Shown here: positions 1 to 62,516 of the stretch, one piece after another | Layout: each line of letters begins with the position of its first letter | How positions within the stretch are numbered: the first letter of the stretch is position 1 | NCBI RefSeq assembly: GCF_040451425.1 | Contig: NZ_CP144374.1 | Coordinates: forward strand, 62,001 to 126,000 | DNA: 64,000 nucleotides | Direction of reading: 5' to 3' | Source of the DNA: Thermodesulfovibrio sp. 3462-1 | GTDB taxonomy: Bacteria > Nitrospirota > Thermodesulfovibrionia > Thermodesulfovibrionales > Thermodesulfovibrionaceae | Program-made: the position numbers and the translations under genes | The notes under the pieces: generated by a model | What the model saw: only the letters and a program-made list of their open reading frames with translations | Database searches by the model: none | Told to the model about the DNA's origin: nothing

Positions 1-1
1 G

Positions 2-175
2 TTAAAACTTATGCTTTCTATAAAATTATTAGAAGAGGGGTTAGTCTCTCTCGGAAAGGCAGCAGAAATCGCAGGATATTCAGAAAAAGCTTATGTTGAA
101 ATACTATTGCATAGAGGGGTTTCACCAATTAGATATCAGAATTTAAATCTTGAAAAAGAGTTTAATAATGCATGA
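2..175 (+). CDS. UPF0175-family antitoxin, C-terminal part
   Basis: The open frame entering from the left edge gives 57 residues and stops at TGA 173-175. It contains the LLEEGLVSLGKAAEIAGYS stretch, which resembles the helix-turn-helix core of UPF0175 proteins, followed by an acidic tail (NLNLEKEFNNA). UPF0175 proteins are usually about 80-90 residues, so the N-terminus probably lies outside the window. The stop overlaps the start of a PIN/DUF3368 gene by 8 nt, the normal order for this toxin-antitoxin type. I infer that it is the DNA-binding antitoxin that represses its own operon and neutralises the PIN protein. Confidence 0.72.
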   Translation, partial: LKLMLSIKLLEEGLVSLGKAAEIAGYSEKAYVEILLHRGVSPIRYQNLNLEKEFNNA

Positions 176-617
176 TAGAATTATAGCGGACACATCTGTC
201 TTGATTGCCCTTGAGAAGATTAACCTTCTTGACTTATTGTGTAAGATTTATAAGGAAGTTATCATACCAGAGGGGGTGCTAAAGGAATTTGGTAGTATCA
301 ATTTGGGTTGTTTTTCAACTAAAAGTGTTGATAGCAAATTGGTTAACCTTTTTATAAAGGAAATGAATCTTGGTAAGGGAGAAGCAGAGGTAATAGCCTT
401 GTCTTACAATACTGGCATTCCTGTTTTAATTGATGATTTAAGGGCAAGAAAACTGGCTGATGAAATAGGATTAACAGTAAGTGGAACAATAGGAGTATTA
501 ATGAAAGCTCAGAAAATGGGGATTATAGAGAGTGCTTTGGAAAAGGTTTTAGAGCTTAAGAAAATGGGCTTTTATATTTCAGATGAAATAATAAGACACA
601 TTAGCAGATTTTACTGA
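168..617 (+). CDS. PIN-domain (DUF3368) toxin
   Basis: This 149-residue protein opens with IIADTSVLIALEKI, the first acidic motif of a PIN ribonuclease fold, followed by VIIPEGVLKEF. It also has the internal GKGEAEVIAL and VLIDDLRARKLA motifs that supply the remaining metal-binding acids in DUF3368 proteins. The frame extends upstream to a TTG at 150, but ATG 168 is preferred because it overlaps the antitoxin stop (translational coupling). The predicted role is a toxin ribonuclease that cuts RNA when free of the upstream UPF0175 partner. Family assignment is firm; the RNA target is unknown. Confidence 0.8.
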   Translation: MHDRIIADTSVLIALEKINLLDLLCKIYKEVIIPEGVLKEFGSINLGCFSTKSVDSKLVNLFIKEMNLGKGEAEVIALSYNTGIPVLIDDLRARKLADEIGLTVSGTIGVLMKAQKMGIIESALEKVLELKKMGFYISDEIIRHISRFY

Positions 618-726
618 TAATTTTGACAGTGAGGTACCAGCCCTTGCAGAAAAGGTATTCAAGCGAGCCCAGTATCCAACAGCAACCCCAAGCGGACAGG
701 CTTTTCCGATAGGGAAGATACGATAG
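616..726 (+). pseudogene. Possible gene remnant (C-terminal fragment)
   Basis: A short open frame overlaps the PIN gene stop and reads DNFDSEVPALAEKV then FKRAQYPTATPSGQAFPIG before TAG. It has the composition of real protein (balanced charge, Pro/Gly turn motif) but no start codon or ribosome site. It ends exactly where the GTTCAA repeat array begins. It could be the tail of a gene truncated by a rearrangement at this repeat-rich locus. I do not recognise the family, and chance coding potential cannot be excluded. Confidence 0.25.
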
Positions 727-757
727 TTCAAATGTTCAAGCGTTCAAGGGTTCAAAG
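726..757 (+). repeat. GTTCAA repeat array, copy A
   Basis: Four GTTCAA units occur in a row (GTTCAAA, TGTTCAAG, CGTTCAAG, GGTTCAAAGG). The same unit recurs at 1661-1753 and 2243-2360 around the four-helix-bundle gene. This first array sits just upstream of the promoter of the DUF4384 gene. Confidence 0.75.
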
Positions 758-769
758 GTGAAAAATACC

Positions 770-826: not shown

Positions 827-1681
827 ATGAGTAAATTCATTACAGGATTAATACTTTCACTTATTTTTGTCTCGTATCTTTATGGAGCTCAGTCTACGAT
901 TACAGAATCAGAGGGCTATGCCTGCATGGGTGAAGACAGGACAAAAAGGCAGACAGAAGAGACAGCCCTTCAGGATGCAAAGAGAAAGGCAATTGAGCAG
1001 GTGAGCACCTATATCCAATCTGAAACACAGGTAAAGGACTTTGAACTTCAGAAAGACATTGTAAATGCCTATGCCAATGCAAAAGTAAGGGTTATTTCTG
1101 CTCAGGCAAAATGGGATAGTGAGCCACCAAAAGTTGGAGACTGTTACAGAATCAAGATCAAGGCAGAGGTCATCCCGGATGAAGAAGCGATGAAGCGGAT
1201 TTCACAGGCAAAGGAGATTGATGATCCTTTAGCACCCCTGAAAGTCAGACTGTGGACTGAAAAAAAGGAATACAAAGCAGGCGAAAGAATAAAACTCTAT
1301 CTCAAAGGTAACAAGCCCTTTTATGCAAGGGTTCTTTACAGACAGGCAGATGGCACAGTTGTGCAGATACTTCCAAATCCTTATAGAAAAGACAACTACT
1401 TTCAGGGTGGAGTAGTCTATGAGATTCCTTCAGGTCCAGACAGGTTTGAACTTGAGACAACACCTCCCTTTGGTGAGGAAAGCTTTATCGTATATGCAAG
1501 CACAGGAGAGCTCGGAAATATTGAGCTTGAAGAGACTGGCAGTGTCTATAAGGTCCGCACATCCCTTAATGACGCAGGAGATAAAACAAGGGGGATAAAC
1601 ATAGTTGAAAAAGGCAGAGTAAAATCTGCCGAGTTTGTAGAGGAGAAAGTAAATATAAAGGTTCAAGATGGTTCAAGGTAG
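827..1681 (+). CDS. Secreted LPP20/DUF4384-type protein
   Basis: The 284-residue product begins with a Sec signal peptide (LILSLIFVSYLYGAQS). Residues of roughly 25-125 resemble the LPP20/FlgO-like fold (AKRKAIEQVSTYIQSETQVKD). Residues of roughly 140-235 match DUF4384, with a DGTVVQILPNPY core and a PFGEESFIVYAS motif. DUF4384 domains are commonly encoded next to caspase-like or WD40 proteins, as here. AAGGAGG at 816-822 supports the start. The last residues (KVQDGSR) are encoded by the GTTCAA repeat array, so the original C-terminus may have been replaced when the repeats arrived. The biochemical role is unknown; an envelope protein working with the downstream caspase is an inference. Confidence 0.7.
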   Translation: MSKFITGLILSLIFVSYLYGAQSTITESEGYACMGEDRTKRQTEETALQDAKRKAIEQVSTYIQSETQVKDFELQKDIVNAYANAKVRVISAQAKWDSEPPKVGDCYRIKIKAEVIPDEEAMKRISQAKEIDDPLAPLKVRLWTEKKEYKAGERIKLYLKGNKPFYARVLYRQADGTVVQILPNPYRKDNYFQGGVVYEIPSGPDRFELETTPPFGEESFIVYASTGELGNIELEETGSVYKVRTSLNDAGDKTRGINIVEKGRVKSAEFVEEKVNIKVQDGSR

Positions 1682-1753
1682 TTCAAATGTTCAAATTGAA
1701 AAAAATTGAACACTTGAACAATCTTGAACATTTGAACAATGTAATTACGGAGG
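1650..1753 (+). repeat. GTTCAA/TTGAAC array, copy B (left flank of four-helix gene)
   Basis: GTTCAA units run forward (1661-1697), then switch to the inverted TTGAAC orientation (from about 1707), so the array can fold as a hairpin. It ends with GTAATTACGGAGG. Almost the same block, including the leading TAAATATAA and the closing GTAATTACGGAGG, is repeated at 2232-2360. The two copies therefore form direct repeats around the four-helix-bundle gene. Confidence 0.8.
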
Positions 1754-1757
1754 AATG

Positions 1758-2234
1758 ATGGTAAGATATTTTGAAGAGCTTGATATATGGAAAGAGGCGA
1801 GGCTTTTTACAAAAAAGATATATGAAATTACAAAAAATAGCTCATTTTCTAAAGACTATGGACTTGTTGACCAGATAAGAAGGGCATCTGTATCAGTGAT
1901 GTCAAATATTGCAGAAGGCTTTGAAAGAGGTAGTAATCAGGAGTTTCTTCAGTTTCTATATATTGCAAAAGGTTCCTGTGGCGAGGTAAGAACCCAGCTA
2001 TATGTTGCCTTAGACCAGGGTTATATAGATAAAAAGGATTTTGACGAACTACTCAGCTCAGCAAAGAAATTGTCCATAATGATTAGTAATTTAATCAGCC
2101 ATATTAAAGGTAGCAGGTTTAAGGGAGAAAAGTTTAAACCAGTAAAACATAAATCAATGAAAGAAGAGATAGAGGAGATTGCAAAAAATCTTGGAATAGA
2201 TATAGCACGAAAGGCTCAGGATGATTCAAAATAA
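1758..2234 (+). CDS. Four-helix-bundle protein (S23/IVP family)
   Basis: This 158-residue protein shows the family signature: FEELDIWKEARLFTKKIYEI, DQIRRASVSVMSNIAEGFER, EFLQFLYIAKGSCGEVRTQL and a closing LISHI helix. Relatives are encoded inside 23S rRNA intervening sequences, or as free-standing genes, and form pentameric nucleic-acid-binding bundles in the related Avd proteins. The C-terminal tail contains KGSRFKGEKFKP, the peptide obtained by translating GTTCAA-like repeat DNA. ATG 1758 is chosen over 1755 because it leaves a better gap to GGAGG at 1749-1753. There is no reverse transcriptase or rRNA nearby. The function here is unknown. Confidence 0.82.
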   Translation: MVRYFEELDIWKEARLFTKKIYEITKNSSFSKDYGLVDQIRRASVSVMSNIAEGFERGSNQEFLQFLYIAKGSCGEVRTQLYVALDQGYIDKKDFDELLSSAKKLSIMISNLISHIKGSRFKGEKFKPVKHKSMKEEIEEIAKNLGIDIARKAQDDSK

Positions 2235-2360
2235 ATATAATAGTTCAAGATAGTTCAAGGTAGTTCAAATGTTCAAATTTGAACAATCTTGAACATTTAA
2301 ACAATATAAATCTTGAACATTTGAACAATGTTGAACATTTGAACAATGTAATTACGGAGG
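2232..2360 (+). repeat. GTTCAA/TTGAAC array, copy C (right flank of four-helix gene)
   Basis: Forward GTTCAA units (2243-2277) are followed by inverted TTGAAC units (2277-2345). It is a longer version of copy B and ends in the same TTTGAACAATGTAATTACGG context. It provides the ribosome binding site GGAGG (2356-2360) of the caspase gene. The frame of the caspase gene stays open through this array, which would add 29 meaningless residues (repeats of LEHLNN). That extension is rejected as coding sequence. Confidence 0.8.
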
Positions 2361-2365
2361 TTTCC

Positions 2366-5236
2366 ATGAAACGCCTTATATTTTTAATAATCTTCCTTAT
2401 CTTACTCCTTCCCTTGGCTGGCAATACTTCTGAGCCTCCTTCTGAGCCGATATTAAGGATAGAGACAGGCATGCATATAGCTACGATAAAGCGTATTGCC
2501 ATAGATGAAGAGGAACGCTTTCTTGTAACAGGCTCTGATGATAAGACCATCCGTGTATGGGAGCTAAAGACTGGAAGGCTTATTAAGACCATAAGACCAC
2601 CAGTTGGTGATGGAAAAGAGGGGAAAATCTATGCAGTTGCCATCTCACCAGATGGAAAAGAGATTGTAGCAGGTGGTTGGACAGGTTATGAGTGGGATAA
2701 AGAACATTCAATCTACATCTTTGACCGTGAGACAGGAAGGCTCATAAAAAGGATAAAAGGACTTCCTAATGTGACAAATCATCTTACCTATTCAAAGGAT
2801 GGAAGGCTCCTTGTAGCAACACTCTGGGGAAATAATGGCATAAGGGTATATGATACAAAGGGATACATAGAGGTCTTTAAAGATACTGAATATGGAGACA
2901 GTAGCTATGGTGCTGACTTTGATAAATCTGGAAGACTTGTGACAACATCTTTAGATGGCTATATAAGGCTTTATAATAAAGACTTTAAACTCATAAAAAA
3001 GAAAAAGGCACCTGGTGGAAAAACACCTTATCACCTGAGCTTTTCACCAGATGGGACAAAGATAGTAGTCGGATACGCTGATTCACCAAAGGTGGATATC
3101 CTTTCTGGTAAAGACCTCTCCCATCTATACTCGCTTAATACAGAAGGTGTTGAAAATGGGAATTTAGGTTCTGTTACATGGTCAAAGGATGGAAGGTTTG
3201 TCTATGCAGGAGGCCGGTGGCAAAAATTGATTGATAATGAATGGAAAGTTACTATTCGGAGATGGGAGGTAAAAAATGGTTCAAGTTATATAGACATACC
3301 TGTAGCAGATAACACAATTATGCATATCCTTCCTTTAAGTAATGGAGGGGCTGTATTTGGGTCAGGAGGGCCTTCATTTGGCATAATTGACCCAGCAGGA
3401 AGGCTTGCCTTATCTGTAAAAGGAAATATCCCGGATTTAAGGGATATGTATGATAAATTCCTCATCTCCTATGATGGCTCAATCATCCAGTTTGGATATG
3501 AATTTTTAGGCAAATCCCCTGCAGTCTTTGACATAAGAGAAAAGAGCCTTATCTCAGGTGAAAAAATCTCATATCAGAGGCTAAACCCACCAATTACAGA
3601 ATCAAGGATAATAAATGTTACAGAATGGAGGGGATCCTACACACCTAAACTAAATGGAAGACCCATTGAGCTTGAAAAGTATGAACGCTCACGCTCACTT
3701 GCCATATCACCTGATGAAAGGGGCTTTCTGCTTGGAACAGAATGGTCTTTAAGGTATTTTGATAAAGATGGAAGACTATTGTGGAGTGTGCCATCACCTT
3801 CTGCTACATGGGGTGTGAATATATCTGGAGATGGAAAGGTAGGAGTTGCTGCCTATGGAGATGGGACAATAAGGTGGTATAGAATTAGTGATGGAAAGGA
3901 GCTATTAGCATTCTTCCCTCACAAGGATAGAAAGAGATGGGTTTTATGGACACCAAAGGGTTATTATGATGCGAGTGCTGGTGGAGAAGACCTCATTGGC
4001 TGGCATATAAACAATGGAAAGGATAGCTCAGCAGACTTCTTCCCTGCAGGCAGGTTCAGGGAGAGATTTTTCAGACCTGATATTATAGCAAAGGTCCTTG
4101 AGACCCTTGATGAAGAAAAAGCCATTGCCCTTGCCAATGAAGAGGCTGGAAAAAAGACAGTTGAGACAAAGATTAAAGATATCCTGCCTCCTGTTGTGAC
4201 GATATTAAGCCCTCAAGATGGCTCTTCTGTATCAGTGAGGGAGGTAACATTAAGGTTTAGCATCCGCAATCCTTCAGGAGAGCCTGTTACAAACATAAAG
4301 GTCCTCATAGATGGAAGACCTCAGGAGACCCAGAGAGGAATAAAGATTGTTGGAAAAGGTGAGGAAGAAAAAGAGATAAAGATAACCATACCTGAGAGGG
4401 ACACAGAGGTATCAATAATTGCAGAGAACAGGTATTCAGCAAGTGTGCCTGCTACTGTAAGGCTTATATGGAAGGGTAAAAAAGAAGAGTATGTCATAAA
4501 GCCAAAGCTTTACATCCTTGCGATAGGCGTAAGTAAGTATCAAGACAGGGATTTGACTTTACAGTTTGCCTCAAAGGATGCGATGGACTTTGTAGAGGTA
4601 ATGAAGACACAGAAGGGAAAGCTCTATGAGGATGTGATTGTAAAGCTTCTTGCAGATGAAAAAGCAACAAAGGATGAGATACTGGACGGTCTTGAGTGGC
4701 TTCAGAGGCAGGCCACATCAAAGGATGTGGCTATGGTATTCATCGCAGGTCATGGAATAAACGACCCAGCAGGGGTATATTACTTCCTTCCAGCAAATGC
4801 AGACTTAGAAAGATTAAAAAGGACAGGTGTTCCTTTTTCTGACATAAAGAACACTGTATCAGCCCTTCCCGGAAAGGTTGTGATGTTTGTTGATACATGC
4901 CATGCTGGAAATGTCATGGGCGGGAAAAGGGCTATAACTGATATAACAGGTGTGATAAATGAGCTTTCAAGTGCTGAAAATGGCGTTGTAGTATTTGCAT
5001 CATCCACTGGAAGGCAGTATTCCCTTGAAGACCCTTCATGGGGAAATGGTGCATTCACAAAGGCATTGACAGAAGGTCTAAAAGGAAAGGCAGACCTTCT
5101 TGGAAAGGGAAAGATCACGATAAACATGCTTGATGCCTTCATAGCAGAGAGGGTAAAGGAGCTTACAAAAGGCAGGCAGACACCAGTTACAGCCAAACCC
5201 CAGACCGTGCCAGATTTCCCGGTGGCAGTGAAGTAG
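2366..5236 (+). CDS. WD40-repeat caspase family (C14) protein
   Basis: The 956-residue protein has an N-terminal signal anchor (RLIFLIIFLILLLPLAG). It continues with a WD40-type beta-propeller (for example DDKTIRVWELKTGRLI near residue 60 and many SPDGK and SKDGR blades), an Ig-like linker (VTILSPQDGSSVSVRE), and a caspase domain from about residue 713. The catalytic pair is visible as His796 in FIAGHGI and Cys845 in FVDTCHAGN. The start at 2366 follows GGAGG by 5 nt. Bacterial C14/WD40 proteases of this layout are known families, but the substrates are mostly unknown. The neighbouring DUF4384 protein is the likely partner, and the signal sequence places the pair in the envelope. Confidence 0.9.
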   Translation: MKRLIFLIIFLILLLPLAGNTSEPPSEPILRIETGMHIATIKRIAIDEEERFLVTGSDDKTIRVWELKTGRLIKTIRPPVGDGKEGKIYAVAISPDGKEIVAGGWTGYEWDKEHSIYIFDRETGRLIKRIKGLPNVTNHLTYSKDGRLLVATLWGNNGIRVYDTKGYIEVFKDTEYGDSSYGADFDKSGRLVTTSLDGYIRLYNKDFKLIKKKKAPGGKTPYHLSFSPDGTKIVVGYADSPKVDILSGKDLSHLYSLNTEGVENGNLGSVTWSKDGRFVYAGGRWQKLIDNEWKVTIRRWEVKNGSSYIDIPVADNTIMHILPLSNGGAVFGSGGPSFGIIDPAGRLALSVKGNIPDLRDMYDKFLISYDGSIIQFGYEFLGKSPAVFDIREKSLISGEKISYQRLNPPITESRIINVTEWRGSYTPKLNGRPIELEKYERSRSLAISPDERGFLLGTEWSLRYFDKDGRLLWSVPSPSATWGVNISGDGKVGVAAYGDGTIRWYRISDGKELLAFFPHKDRKRWVLWTPKGYYDASAGGEDLIGWHINNGKDSSADFFPAGRFRERFFRPDIIAKVLETLDEEKAIALANEEAGKKTVETKIKDILPPVVTILSPQDGSSVSVREVTLRFSIRNPSGEPVTNIKVLIDGRPQETQRGIKIVGKGEEEKEIKITIPERDTEVSIIAENRYSASVPATVRLIWKGKKEEYVIKPKLYILAIGVSKYQDRDLTLQFASKDAMDFVEVMKTQKGKLYEDVIVKLLADEKATKDEILDGLEWLQRQATSKDVAMVFIAGHGINDPAGVYYFLPANADLERLKRTGVPFSDIKNTVSALPGKVVMFVDTCHAGNVMGGKRAITDITGVINELSSAENGVVVFASSTGRQYSLEDPSWGNGAFTKALTEGLKGKADLLGKGKITINMLDAFIAERVKELTKGRQTPVTAKPQTVPDFPVAVK

Positions 5237-60627: not shown

Positions 60628-62516
60628 GTCTTTTTAGTGATTTTGATATTTATCTTTTTAAAGAAGGAAATCATTTCAATGCTTATGAAAAGCTTGGTTC
60701 TCATATTATTGAAGTTGATGGGCAGAAAGGAACATATTTTGCTGTGTGGGCTCCAAATGCTGAAAAAGTTTATGTTATAGGAGATTTTAACGGATGGTCT
60801 CTAAATCATCCTCTTGCTCCACGTTGGGATAGCTCTGGTATATGGGAGGCTTTTATTCCTGGCGTTGATAAAGGAACAAAGTATAAATACTATATAATTT
60901 CCAAATATGGTTACCATCTTCAAAAAGGAGATCCTTACAGCTTCTTCTGGGAAACACCTCCAGCTACTGCATCAATAGTCTGGGATTTAGAGTATAAATG
61001 GGCTGATGATGAATGGATGAAAAATAGAGCTAAATACAATAGCCTTAGCTCGCCAATATCAATTTATGAAGTTCATCTTGGCTCATGGAGAAGAGTTCCT
61101 CAGGAAGGAAATAGATTTCTTACATACAGGGAACTTGCCGAATGGTTACCAAAGTATGTAAAAGATATGGGATTTACACATGTTGAAATTTTACCTGTTA
61201 TGGAGCATCCTTTTTATGGTTCCTGGGGATATCAAACAATTGGATATTTTGCACCTACAAGCAGATATGGAACTCCGCAGGATTTTATGTATCTTATTGA
61301 TAGCCTTCATCAGCATGGGATAGGTGTAATTCTTGACTGGGTTCCGTCTCATTTTCCTCAGGATGGTCATGGACTCAGCTTTTTTGACGGAACTTATCTT
61401 TATGAACATCAGGATCCAAAAAAAGGATATCATCCTCATTGGCACAGCTACATTTTTAATCATGGAAGAAATGAAGTTAGAAACTTTCTTATAAGTTCTG
61501 CCATTTTCTGGCTTGAAAAATATCATGTTGATGGATTAAGAGTTGATGCAGTGGCTTCAATGCTTTATCTTGATTATGGAAGGGCTCCAGGAGAATGGAT
61601 TCCAAACAAATATGGAGGCAAAGAAAACTTAGAGGCAATAGAATTCATAAGAAGATGTAATGAAACAGTCTATGAAAAATATCCTGATACTCAGACAATT
61701 GCTGAAGAATCTACTGCCTGGCCACTTGTGACCCGCCCCACCTATCTTGGAGGACTTGGCTTTGGTATGAAGTGGAATATGGGATGGATGCATGACACAC
61801 TGAGTTATTTTTCAAAAGACCCAGTTTACAGAAAATATCATCACAATAACCTTGCTTTCAGCATCTGGTATGCTTTTTCTGAAAACTTTGTTTTGCCTCT
61901 TTCTCACGATGAAGTTGTTTATGGTAAAGGCTCTCTTTTAAATAAAATGCCTGGAGACAACTGGCAAAAATTCGCTAATCTGAGACTTCTTTTTGGATAC
62001 ATGTATGCCCATCCAGGTAAAAAACTTATTTTTATGGGAGGAGAGTTTGCCCAATGCAATGAGTGGTATCATGAAGAAAGCTTACATTGGCATCTTCTTG
62101 AATATCCTCAGCATCAAGGAATTCAAAGATTGGTAAAGGATTTAAACAATCTTTATAAAAATGAACCAGCCCTTCATGAGCTTGACTTTGATCCATCAGG
62201 TTTTGAATGGATTGATTTTACTGATGCAGAGCAAAGTATAATAAGTTTTCTAAGGAAAGGAAGGGACCCAAAACAACTAATCTGTGTAGTATGCAATTTT
62301 ACGCCAGTTCCGAGATTTAATTACAGAATAGGAGTTCCTTTTAGGGGTTACTGGAAGGAGGTTTTAAATACTGATTCAGAGCTTTATGGAGGAAGCAATT
62401 GTGGCAACATGGGAGGATTGATGACTGAAAACCTCTCTATACATGGAAGACCTTACTCTTTAAATTTAACTTTACCTCCTTTAGGAGTTTTATTTTTAAA
62501 ATGGCAAGATGAATAA
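60612..62516 (+). CDS. glgB: 1,4-alpha-glucan branching enzyme
   Basis: The 634-residue GH13 enzyme has an N-terminal CBM48 ([20 protein letters not shown]) and the catalytic barrel with [11 protein letters not shown] and [10 protein letters not shown]. The nucleophile is in [20 protein letters not shown], the general acid Glu in [10 protein letters not shown], and the third Asp in [13 protein letters not shown]. It adds alpha-1,6 branches to glycogen. No glgA, glgC or glgP gene is in view. Confidence 0.94.

What the first reader, a model, noticed from the sequence alone, without database searches (positions are those of the whole stretch)
1650..2360. Four-helix-bundle gene bracketed by GTTCAA/TTGAAC hairpin arrays inside the caspase operon
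Near-identical direct repeats (1650-1753 and 2232-2360) surround the gene and duplicate the ribosome-site block GTAATTACGGAGG. Repeat DNA forms the end of the upstream protein (KVQDGSR), and similar peptide (GSRFKGEKFK) ends the four-helix protein. This looks like a gene mobilised by, or spreading with, the repeats. From memory, such tails recur in this family, but I know of no described mechanism.
Basis: partly seen in the sequence, partly recalled or inferred. Interest (0 to 1): 0.7.

Follow-up and report, generated by a model that had tools for sequence, protein, structure and literature searches.

The report
S23 gene unit with repeat arms
A small bacterial gene of unknown function, long known only as a stowaway inside ribosomal RNA genes, also travels between ordinary genes as a roughly 450-base unit bounded by matching short-repeat arms, which gives an old family of unexplained bacterial repeats a candidate driver.

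Summary
An intact S23/IVP (PF05635) gene at 1755-2234 lies between two near-identical GTTCAA/TTGAAC hairpin blocks (1646-1753, 2228-2360), each ending in GTAATTACGGAGG. It is one case of a general anatomy. In 59 independent S23 loci, 50 have matching inverted arms of 6-11 bp tandem repeats, against 16 of 195 control genes. The repeat unit differs between loci but matches within a locus. Arms travel with the gene: S23 copies at unrelated sites share arm sequence only when the proteins are closely related. Nostoc plasmids give base-level filled and empty sites, and one 420-bp unit recurs in four contexts with homology ending at its arms. Arm-only derivatives exist. S23 is under purifying selection. 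The anatomy matches the 23S rRNA intervening sequence, but the unit sits between protein genes. How it moves is unknown. The window's genome has no detectable reverse transcriptase or Y1 transposase, and arm mismatches show no RNA-pairing bias. I infer a DNA-level, S23-assisted process (low confidence). In this genome GTTCAA arrays also occur at about 14 sites without S23.

The parts
1646..1753 (.). Left hairpin block: GTTCAA x4 then TTGAAC x4 (8-10 bp units), ending in GTAATTACGGAGG
   Evidence: folds at z -7.6
1741..1753 (+). GTAATTACGGAGG, probable ribosome-binding block of the S23 gene
   Evidence: Direct reading; exact copy at 2348-2360
1755..2234 (+). S23 / 23S rRNA-intervening-sequence protein (PF05635), 159 aa, intact; only S23 gene in the genome
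   Evidence: PF05635 E 9e-41; one match in G000; fold Z 19.7 to 2gsc, 14.6 to DGR Avd 8ub7
2228..2360 (.). Right hairpin block: GTTCAA x4 then TTGAAC x6, ending in GTAATTACGGAGG
   Evidence: folds at z -5.7
2348..2360 (+). Second copy of GTAATTACGGAGG, now the ribosome-binding block of the caspase gene
   Evidence: Direct reading
827..1681 (+). Upstream neighbour, DUF4384 protein; its last codons (KVQDGSR) and stop are array DNA
   Evidence: orthologs in the genus read (L024, L026) end without array
2366..5236 (+). Downstream neighbour, WD40-repeat plus caspase (Peptidase_C14) protein
726..755 (+). Solo GTTCAA x4 array with no S23 gene

Best explanation
The S23 gene and its repeat blocks form one compact mobile unit. 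S23 is its only gene, and the inverted arrays of short tandem repeats are its ends. Units of this kind insert between protein genes, usually in the junction between one coding sequence and the next. The repeat unit drifts over time, but both ends of a unit stay matched. Units can lose S23 and remain as arm-only hairpins. The plan is that of the 23S rRNA intervening sequence (IVS), placed outside rRNA. Shown: the unit, its boundaries, co-inheritance of arms with S23, purifying selection on S23, and arm-only derivatives. Inferred: that S23, a four-helix bundle whose solved relatives are pentameric rings (Xanthomonas S23) or the Avd ring of DGR ribonucleoproteins, binds the folded arms and promotes copying or insertion at DNA level with host replication or repair. 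I put this last step at about 0.3. In the window both ends are complete hairpins, and the right one now supplies the caspase gene's ribosome site.
For: Inverted arms: 58 of 70 S23 loci (50 of 59 after removing loci with homologous flanks) reach the 95% null level; controls 16 of 195 genes; Fisher p about 1e-29. 12 of 14 plasmid S23 genes, mostly cyanobacterial, likewise. Boundaries: one 420-bp unit is present in pNsp_a and absent (3-nt spacer) in four Nostoc plasmids (pNsp_b, pNsp_c, p057_H, pC052_B); the same unit in Aulosira, Trichormus and Scytonema is homologous only over query 290-710, which is the unit. A second unit sits at a junction that is TAA followed directly by ATG in two relatives. 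L148/L153/L174 and L019/L171 also lose homology just outside their arms. Co-inheritance: arm similarity rises from background (8-9) to 21.6 when S23 identity is 70% or more at unrelated sites. Selection: codon-position differences 266:148:613. Arm-only forms: L197, L198, L093. S23 and GTTCAA arrays co-occur: 32 of 36 array genomes have S23 against 155 of 259, p 3e-4, stratified 0.004.
Against: No movement has been observed. At the window itself the nearest S23-free relative is too diverged for a base-level empty site. In G000 about 14 array sites lack S23 and most run in one orientation only. Four of 36 array genomes lack S23. Target-site duplications are not clear; TTCTA flanks one unit but may belong to the unit's own end. 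S23 has no recognised catalytic domain.
Confidence: 0.78

Rival explanations
1. Target preference: the gene lands in pre-existing short-tandem-repeat hairpins, as IVSs land in rRNA hairpin loops, and the arrays are not part of the unit.
For: Repeat arrays and arm-only hairpins exist without S23. IVSs replace hairpin tetraloops (PMC4990558).
Against: Empty sites in Nostoc plasmids have no array, only 0-3 nt between genes. Arms resemble those of related S23 copies at unrelated sites.
Confidence: 0.12
2. Retroelement: the transcript is copied by a reverse transcriptase in trans, with S23 acting like the DGR accessory protein Avd.
For: S23 is the Avd fold family (Z 14.6 to 8ub7). Distant S23 members L021 and L022 sit between VR and TR copies, as in DGRs.
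Against: No RVT_1 match in complete genome G000; 34 of 59 S23-rich genomes lack RVT_1; S23 and RVT_1 not associated, p 0.24. Arm mismatches show no G-U bias, 96 against 104.
Confidence: 0.1
3. RAYT/REPIN-like: a Y1 transposase in trans moves arm hairpins and S23 is cargo.
For: Arm-only hairpins resemble REPINs (PMC3116915). PF01797 occurs in 210 of 295 genomes.
Against: G000 has no PF01797 match. Arms have no common sequence; REPs do.
Confidence: 0.08
4. Homologous recombination between dispersed arrays spreads S23 and other cargo; the arms are regulatory or hairpin elements selected at S23 genes.
For: The window blocks are direct repeats. A toxin-antitoxin module at 1-617 is likewise bounded by direct repeats that contain a GTTCAA array.
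Against: Array-free empty sites; precise unit boundaries in several contexts.
Confidence: 0.15

Closest known systems
23S rRNA intervening sequence (IVS) with S23p ORF (Coxiella, Leptospira)
   Same: S23 family protein, terminal inverted repeats (28 bp in Coxiella), 428-444 nt (PMC4990558); window-type units are about 420-505 nt with arms of median 35 nt
   Different: Lies between protein genes, not in an rRNA helix; arms are short tandem repeats; RNase III excision not tested
Short tandemly repeated repetitive (STRR) sequences and heptamer repeats of cyanobacteria and Beggiatoaceae
   Same: Intergenic arrays of units of about 7 bp. MacGregor reports that no transfer mechanism is evident for TAACTGA repeats (PMC4679880). 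Arms in cyanobacterial plasmids are of this type
   Different: That report names no linked gene; here a gene sits between inverted arrays
REPIN/RAYT system
   Same: Gene flanked by inverted repeats, plus dispersed gene-less hairpins
   Different: No Y1 transposase in G000; arms have no shared core sequence; protein is unrelated to RAYTs
Avd of diversity-generating retroelements
   Same: Same fold and Pfam family
   Different: No reverse transcriptase in the window's genome; no TR/VR at the window

Membership tests
S23 / 23S_rRNA_IVP protein family (PF05635) | Match over curated cut-off and four-helix-bundle fold | tested here: met
   138.8 bits against 33.8; 2gsc Z 19.7, 1.1 A over 114 residues
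IVS in rRNA | S23 ORF inside a 0.4-0.5 kb unit with terminal inverted repeats | tested here: met
IVS in rRNA | Located inside a 16S or 23S rRNA gene | tested here: not met
   Lies between DUF4384 and caspase genes; the Rfam gathering scan finds only one tRNA in the window
IVS in rRNA | Excised from the transcript by RNase III | not testable with these tools
   Hairpins are predicted; arm mismatches show no RNA-strand bias
REPIN/RAYT | Y1 (RAYT) transposase in the genome | tested here: not met
   No PF01797 match in G000
Diversity-generating retroelement | Reverse transcriptase with TR and VR | tested here: not met
   No PF00078 match in G000
STRR-type repeats | Intergenic tandem arrays of short units (about 6-10 bp) | tested here: met
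   8-10 bp GTTCAA units at about 16 sites, mostly at gene ends

The most novel reading that the evidence does not exclude
S23 proteins drive a new class of bacterial mobile element: no recognised transposase or reverse transcriptase, ends defined by matched tandem-repeat arms rather than by a fixed sequence, and gene-less derivatives that would account for many of the unexplained short tandem repeat arrays in bacteria, cyanobacterial STRRs included. The rRNA IVSs would be the members that landed in rRNA.
Probability: 0.35. Interest if true: 0.92.

Novelty: new variant of a known kind. Interest (0 to 1): 0.77.

Why it matters
The function of S23p, found inside rRNA IVSs, is still recorded as unknown (PMC4990558), and the origin of bacterial short tandem repeat arrays is open (PMC4679880). 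Finding S23 as the only gene of a precise unit bounded by such arrays ties the two problems together and makes both testable in culturable Nostoc plasmids. It also reinterprets many 'four helix bundle protein' annotations between operon genes as mobile units.

Tried and rejected
1) GTTCAA-specific association with S23: in most array-bearing genomes the arrays are not next to S23 (listed positions), so the claim was widened to unit-specific arms. 2) Reverse transcriptase in trans: not supported. 3) Y1/RAYT in trans: absent from G000. 4) RNA-level selection on arm pairing: G-U type 96 against A-C type 104 mismatches, p 0.62. 5) Duplicate S23 copies in G029 (L156, L157) as transposition evidence: homology runs beyond the arms into flanking DNA beside what look like CRISPR arrays, so not used. 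6) Base-level empty site at the window: G012 is too diverged. 7) genome-contig scan gave only four relatives because of the peptides chosen. 9) No S23 match in phage records. 10) Literature searches found no description of S23 units with repeat arms outside rRNA; most subscription journals are not held.

Full report
OBSERVATION. Block 1646-1753 holds four GTTCAA and then four TTGAAC; block 2228-2360 holds four and then six; both end in GTAATTACGGAGG. Tandem GTTCAA pairs in the window number 16 against 0.2 expected. Both blocks fold into strong hairpins, z -7.6 and -5.7. Between them is an intact S23 gene (PF05635, E 9e-41), flanked by a DUF4384 gene and a WD40-caspase gene. The DUF4384 protein ends in array DNA (KVQDGSR). 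The GSRFKGEKFK peptide is at residues 119-128 of the S23 protein, followed by 31 more residues. It is conserved as protein in relatives L130 and L131 and in more distant S23 loci, in most of them with codons unlike the array, so in the window it is not a piece of array.

GENOME AND GENUS. The genome (1.82 Mb, one contig) has one S23 gene but GTTCAA arrays at about 16 sites. About 14 of these have no S23 and lie mostly at gene ends. Of 15 relatives in the genus, those without S23 have array counts at the level of the reversed-pattern control, except G008 (66% complete); G011 has a 9-bp array directly upstream of its S23 gene. G012 has DUF4384 (decayed) followed by the caspase gene with neither S23 nor arrays. 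In G008 the caspase ortholog carries a clean 20-residue in-frame insertion made of GTTCAA array that is absent from two orthologs, so arrays can appear without S23.

PHYLUM. In 295 genomes S23 occurs in 187 and triple GTTCAA arrays in 36. 32 of the 36 have S23, against 155 of 259 others (odds ratio 5.4, p 3e-4; permutation within kinship strata p 0.004). The association is real but incomplete, and listed array positions are mostly not adjacent to S23.

THE GENERAL ANATOMY. The nearest named relatives showed the pattern. L130 and L131 have GTTCAA arrays on both sides; L132 and L133 have other short repeats in inverted orientation. I aligned 200 nt upstream of each S23 domain with the reverse complement of 200 nt downstream. 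Of 70 loci, 58 reached the 95% level of a permuted-locus null and 45 the 99% level; 195 other genes in the fetched loci gave 16 and 5; reverse-only and complement-only controls gave 9 and 12 at 95%. After merging loci with homologous flanks, 50 of 59 remained (Fisher p 1.6e-29), and 55 of 59 pass a per-locus dinucleotide shuffle at 0.05. Arms are tandem repeats of 6-11 bp whose unit varies by locus (GGCACAGA, CAGACNA, GAGTGGC, GTGTCAGTG, CAGCTGTCAG, GGCAATAG and others). Median arm length is 35 nt, and the upstream arm is purine-rich in 59 of 71. A blind pattern search for GTCAGTG pairs returned inverted hits at G213:C31 4517 and 4925, which flank the S23 gene at 4587-4904.

UNIT BOUNDARIES. 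Plasmid S23 genes, mostly cyanobacterial, have such arms in 12 of 14 cases. Nostoc plasmids carry a conserved gene1-gene2-gene3 block. In pNsp_a a 420-nt unit lies between gene1 and gene2; in pNsp_b, pNsp_c, p057_H and pC052_B that junction is 3 nt long. In pNsp_c a different unit (505 nt, GGGAAAAG arms) lies between gene2 and gene3; in pC052_B and N6 that junction is TAA followed at once by ATG. The pNsp_a unit also occurs in Aulosira, Trichormus and Scytonema at other sites, at 78-81% identity, and homology covers query 290-710 only, which is the unit. Two independent definitions of the ends therefore agree. A third site (TraM|hyp) is filled in pC052_D and pNe_5 and empty in p057_A; in pNsp_c it holds arms without S23. 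A fourth (nrdB|nrdA) is filled in N. edaphicum and empty in Calothrix NIES-4105. Among Nitrospirota, L148/L153/L174 and L019/L171 share S23 plus arms at unrelated sites and nothing beyond. At one histidine kinase / response regulator junction, G213 and G245 hold different S23 units, while G223 holds an arm-only hairpin of the same unit as the S23 next to it; in G223 this repeat occurs only within that 1 kb.

ARMS TRAVEL WITH S23. For 2402 pairs at unrelated sites, arm similarity is at background (8-9) below 50% S23 identity, 15.5 at 60-70% and 21.6 above 70% (reversed control 10.7 and 12.1). S23 copies differ at codon positions 266:148:613, so the protein is translated and constrained, and Q40, S47, N51, E54 and E77 are invariant in 67 sequences.

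MECHANISM. Three trans-acting or RNA-level ideas were tested. Reverse transcriptase: none detected in G000, 34 of 59 S23-rich genomes lack RVT_1, no association. Y1/RAYT transposase: none in G000. Pairing maintained as RNA: mismatches that would be G-U are no commoner than those that would be A-C (96 against 104). What remains is DNA-level matching of the arms, with S23 as the only constrained product of the unit. The model fold matches Xanthomonas S23 (Z 19.7) and the Avd ring of DGR ribonucleoproteins (Z 14.6). I infer that S23 binds the folded arms and assists copying or insertion by host replication or repair; this step is not shown.

COMPARISON. The Coxiella IVS is 428-444 nt, has a 28-bp terminal inverted repeat and holds S23p in its loop. 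The present unit has the same plan but is not in rRNA, so it works like an IVS and is not filed as one. Short tandem repeats in cyanobacteria and Beggiatoaceae are known without a linked gene. REPIN/RAYT is an analogy only. No paper found in the held library describes S23 units with repeat arms outside rRNA.

Noticed in passing
window 1-760: A small toxin-antitoxin-like module (PIN-domain gene ending at 617) is followed at about 625-758 by a near copy of the 3' end of the upstream WD40-caspase gene plus a GTTCAA array (G000 61729-61862), so the module is bounded by direct repeats.
   Followed up: partly
L072 2396-2446 (G008:C13): Caspase ortholog with a clean 20-residue in-frame insertion made of GTTCAA array, absent from two orthologs.
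   Followed up: yes
L021, L022 (G014:C10, G003:C19): Distant S23 members lie between long direct repeats that differ mainly at A positions, as in diversity-generating retroelements; PF00078 matches lie about 0.5 kb downstream in both.
   Followed up: partly
L156, L157 (G029): Two 95% identical S23 pseudogene copies sit beside what look like CRISPR arrays; homology extends beyond the arms.
   Followed up: partly
L177, L187: Different S23 units with different arms lie between cas6 and cas4 of type I-D CRISPR loci on Pseudanabaena and Anabaena plasmids.
   Followed up: no
L197, L198: S23-less inverted short-repeat elements (260 and 340 nt) at the TraM|hyp junction of Nostoc plasmids.
   Followed up: partly
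G225: 27 GTCAGTG tandem matches in one genome that also has seven S23 matches.
   Followed up: no
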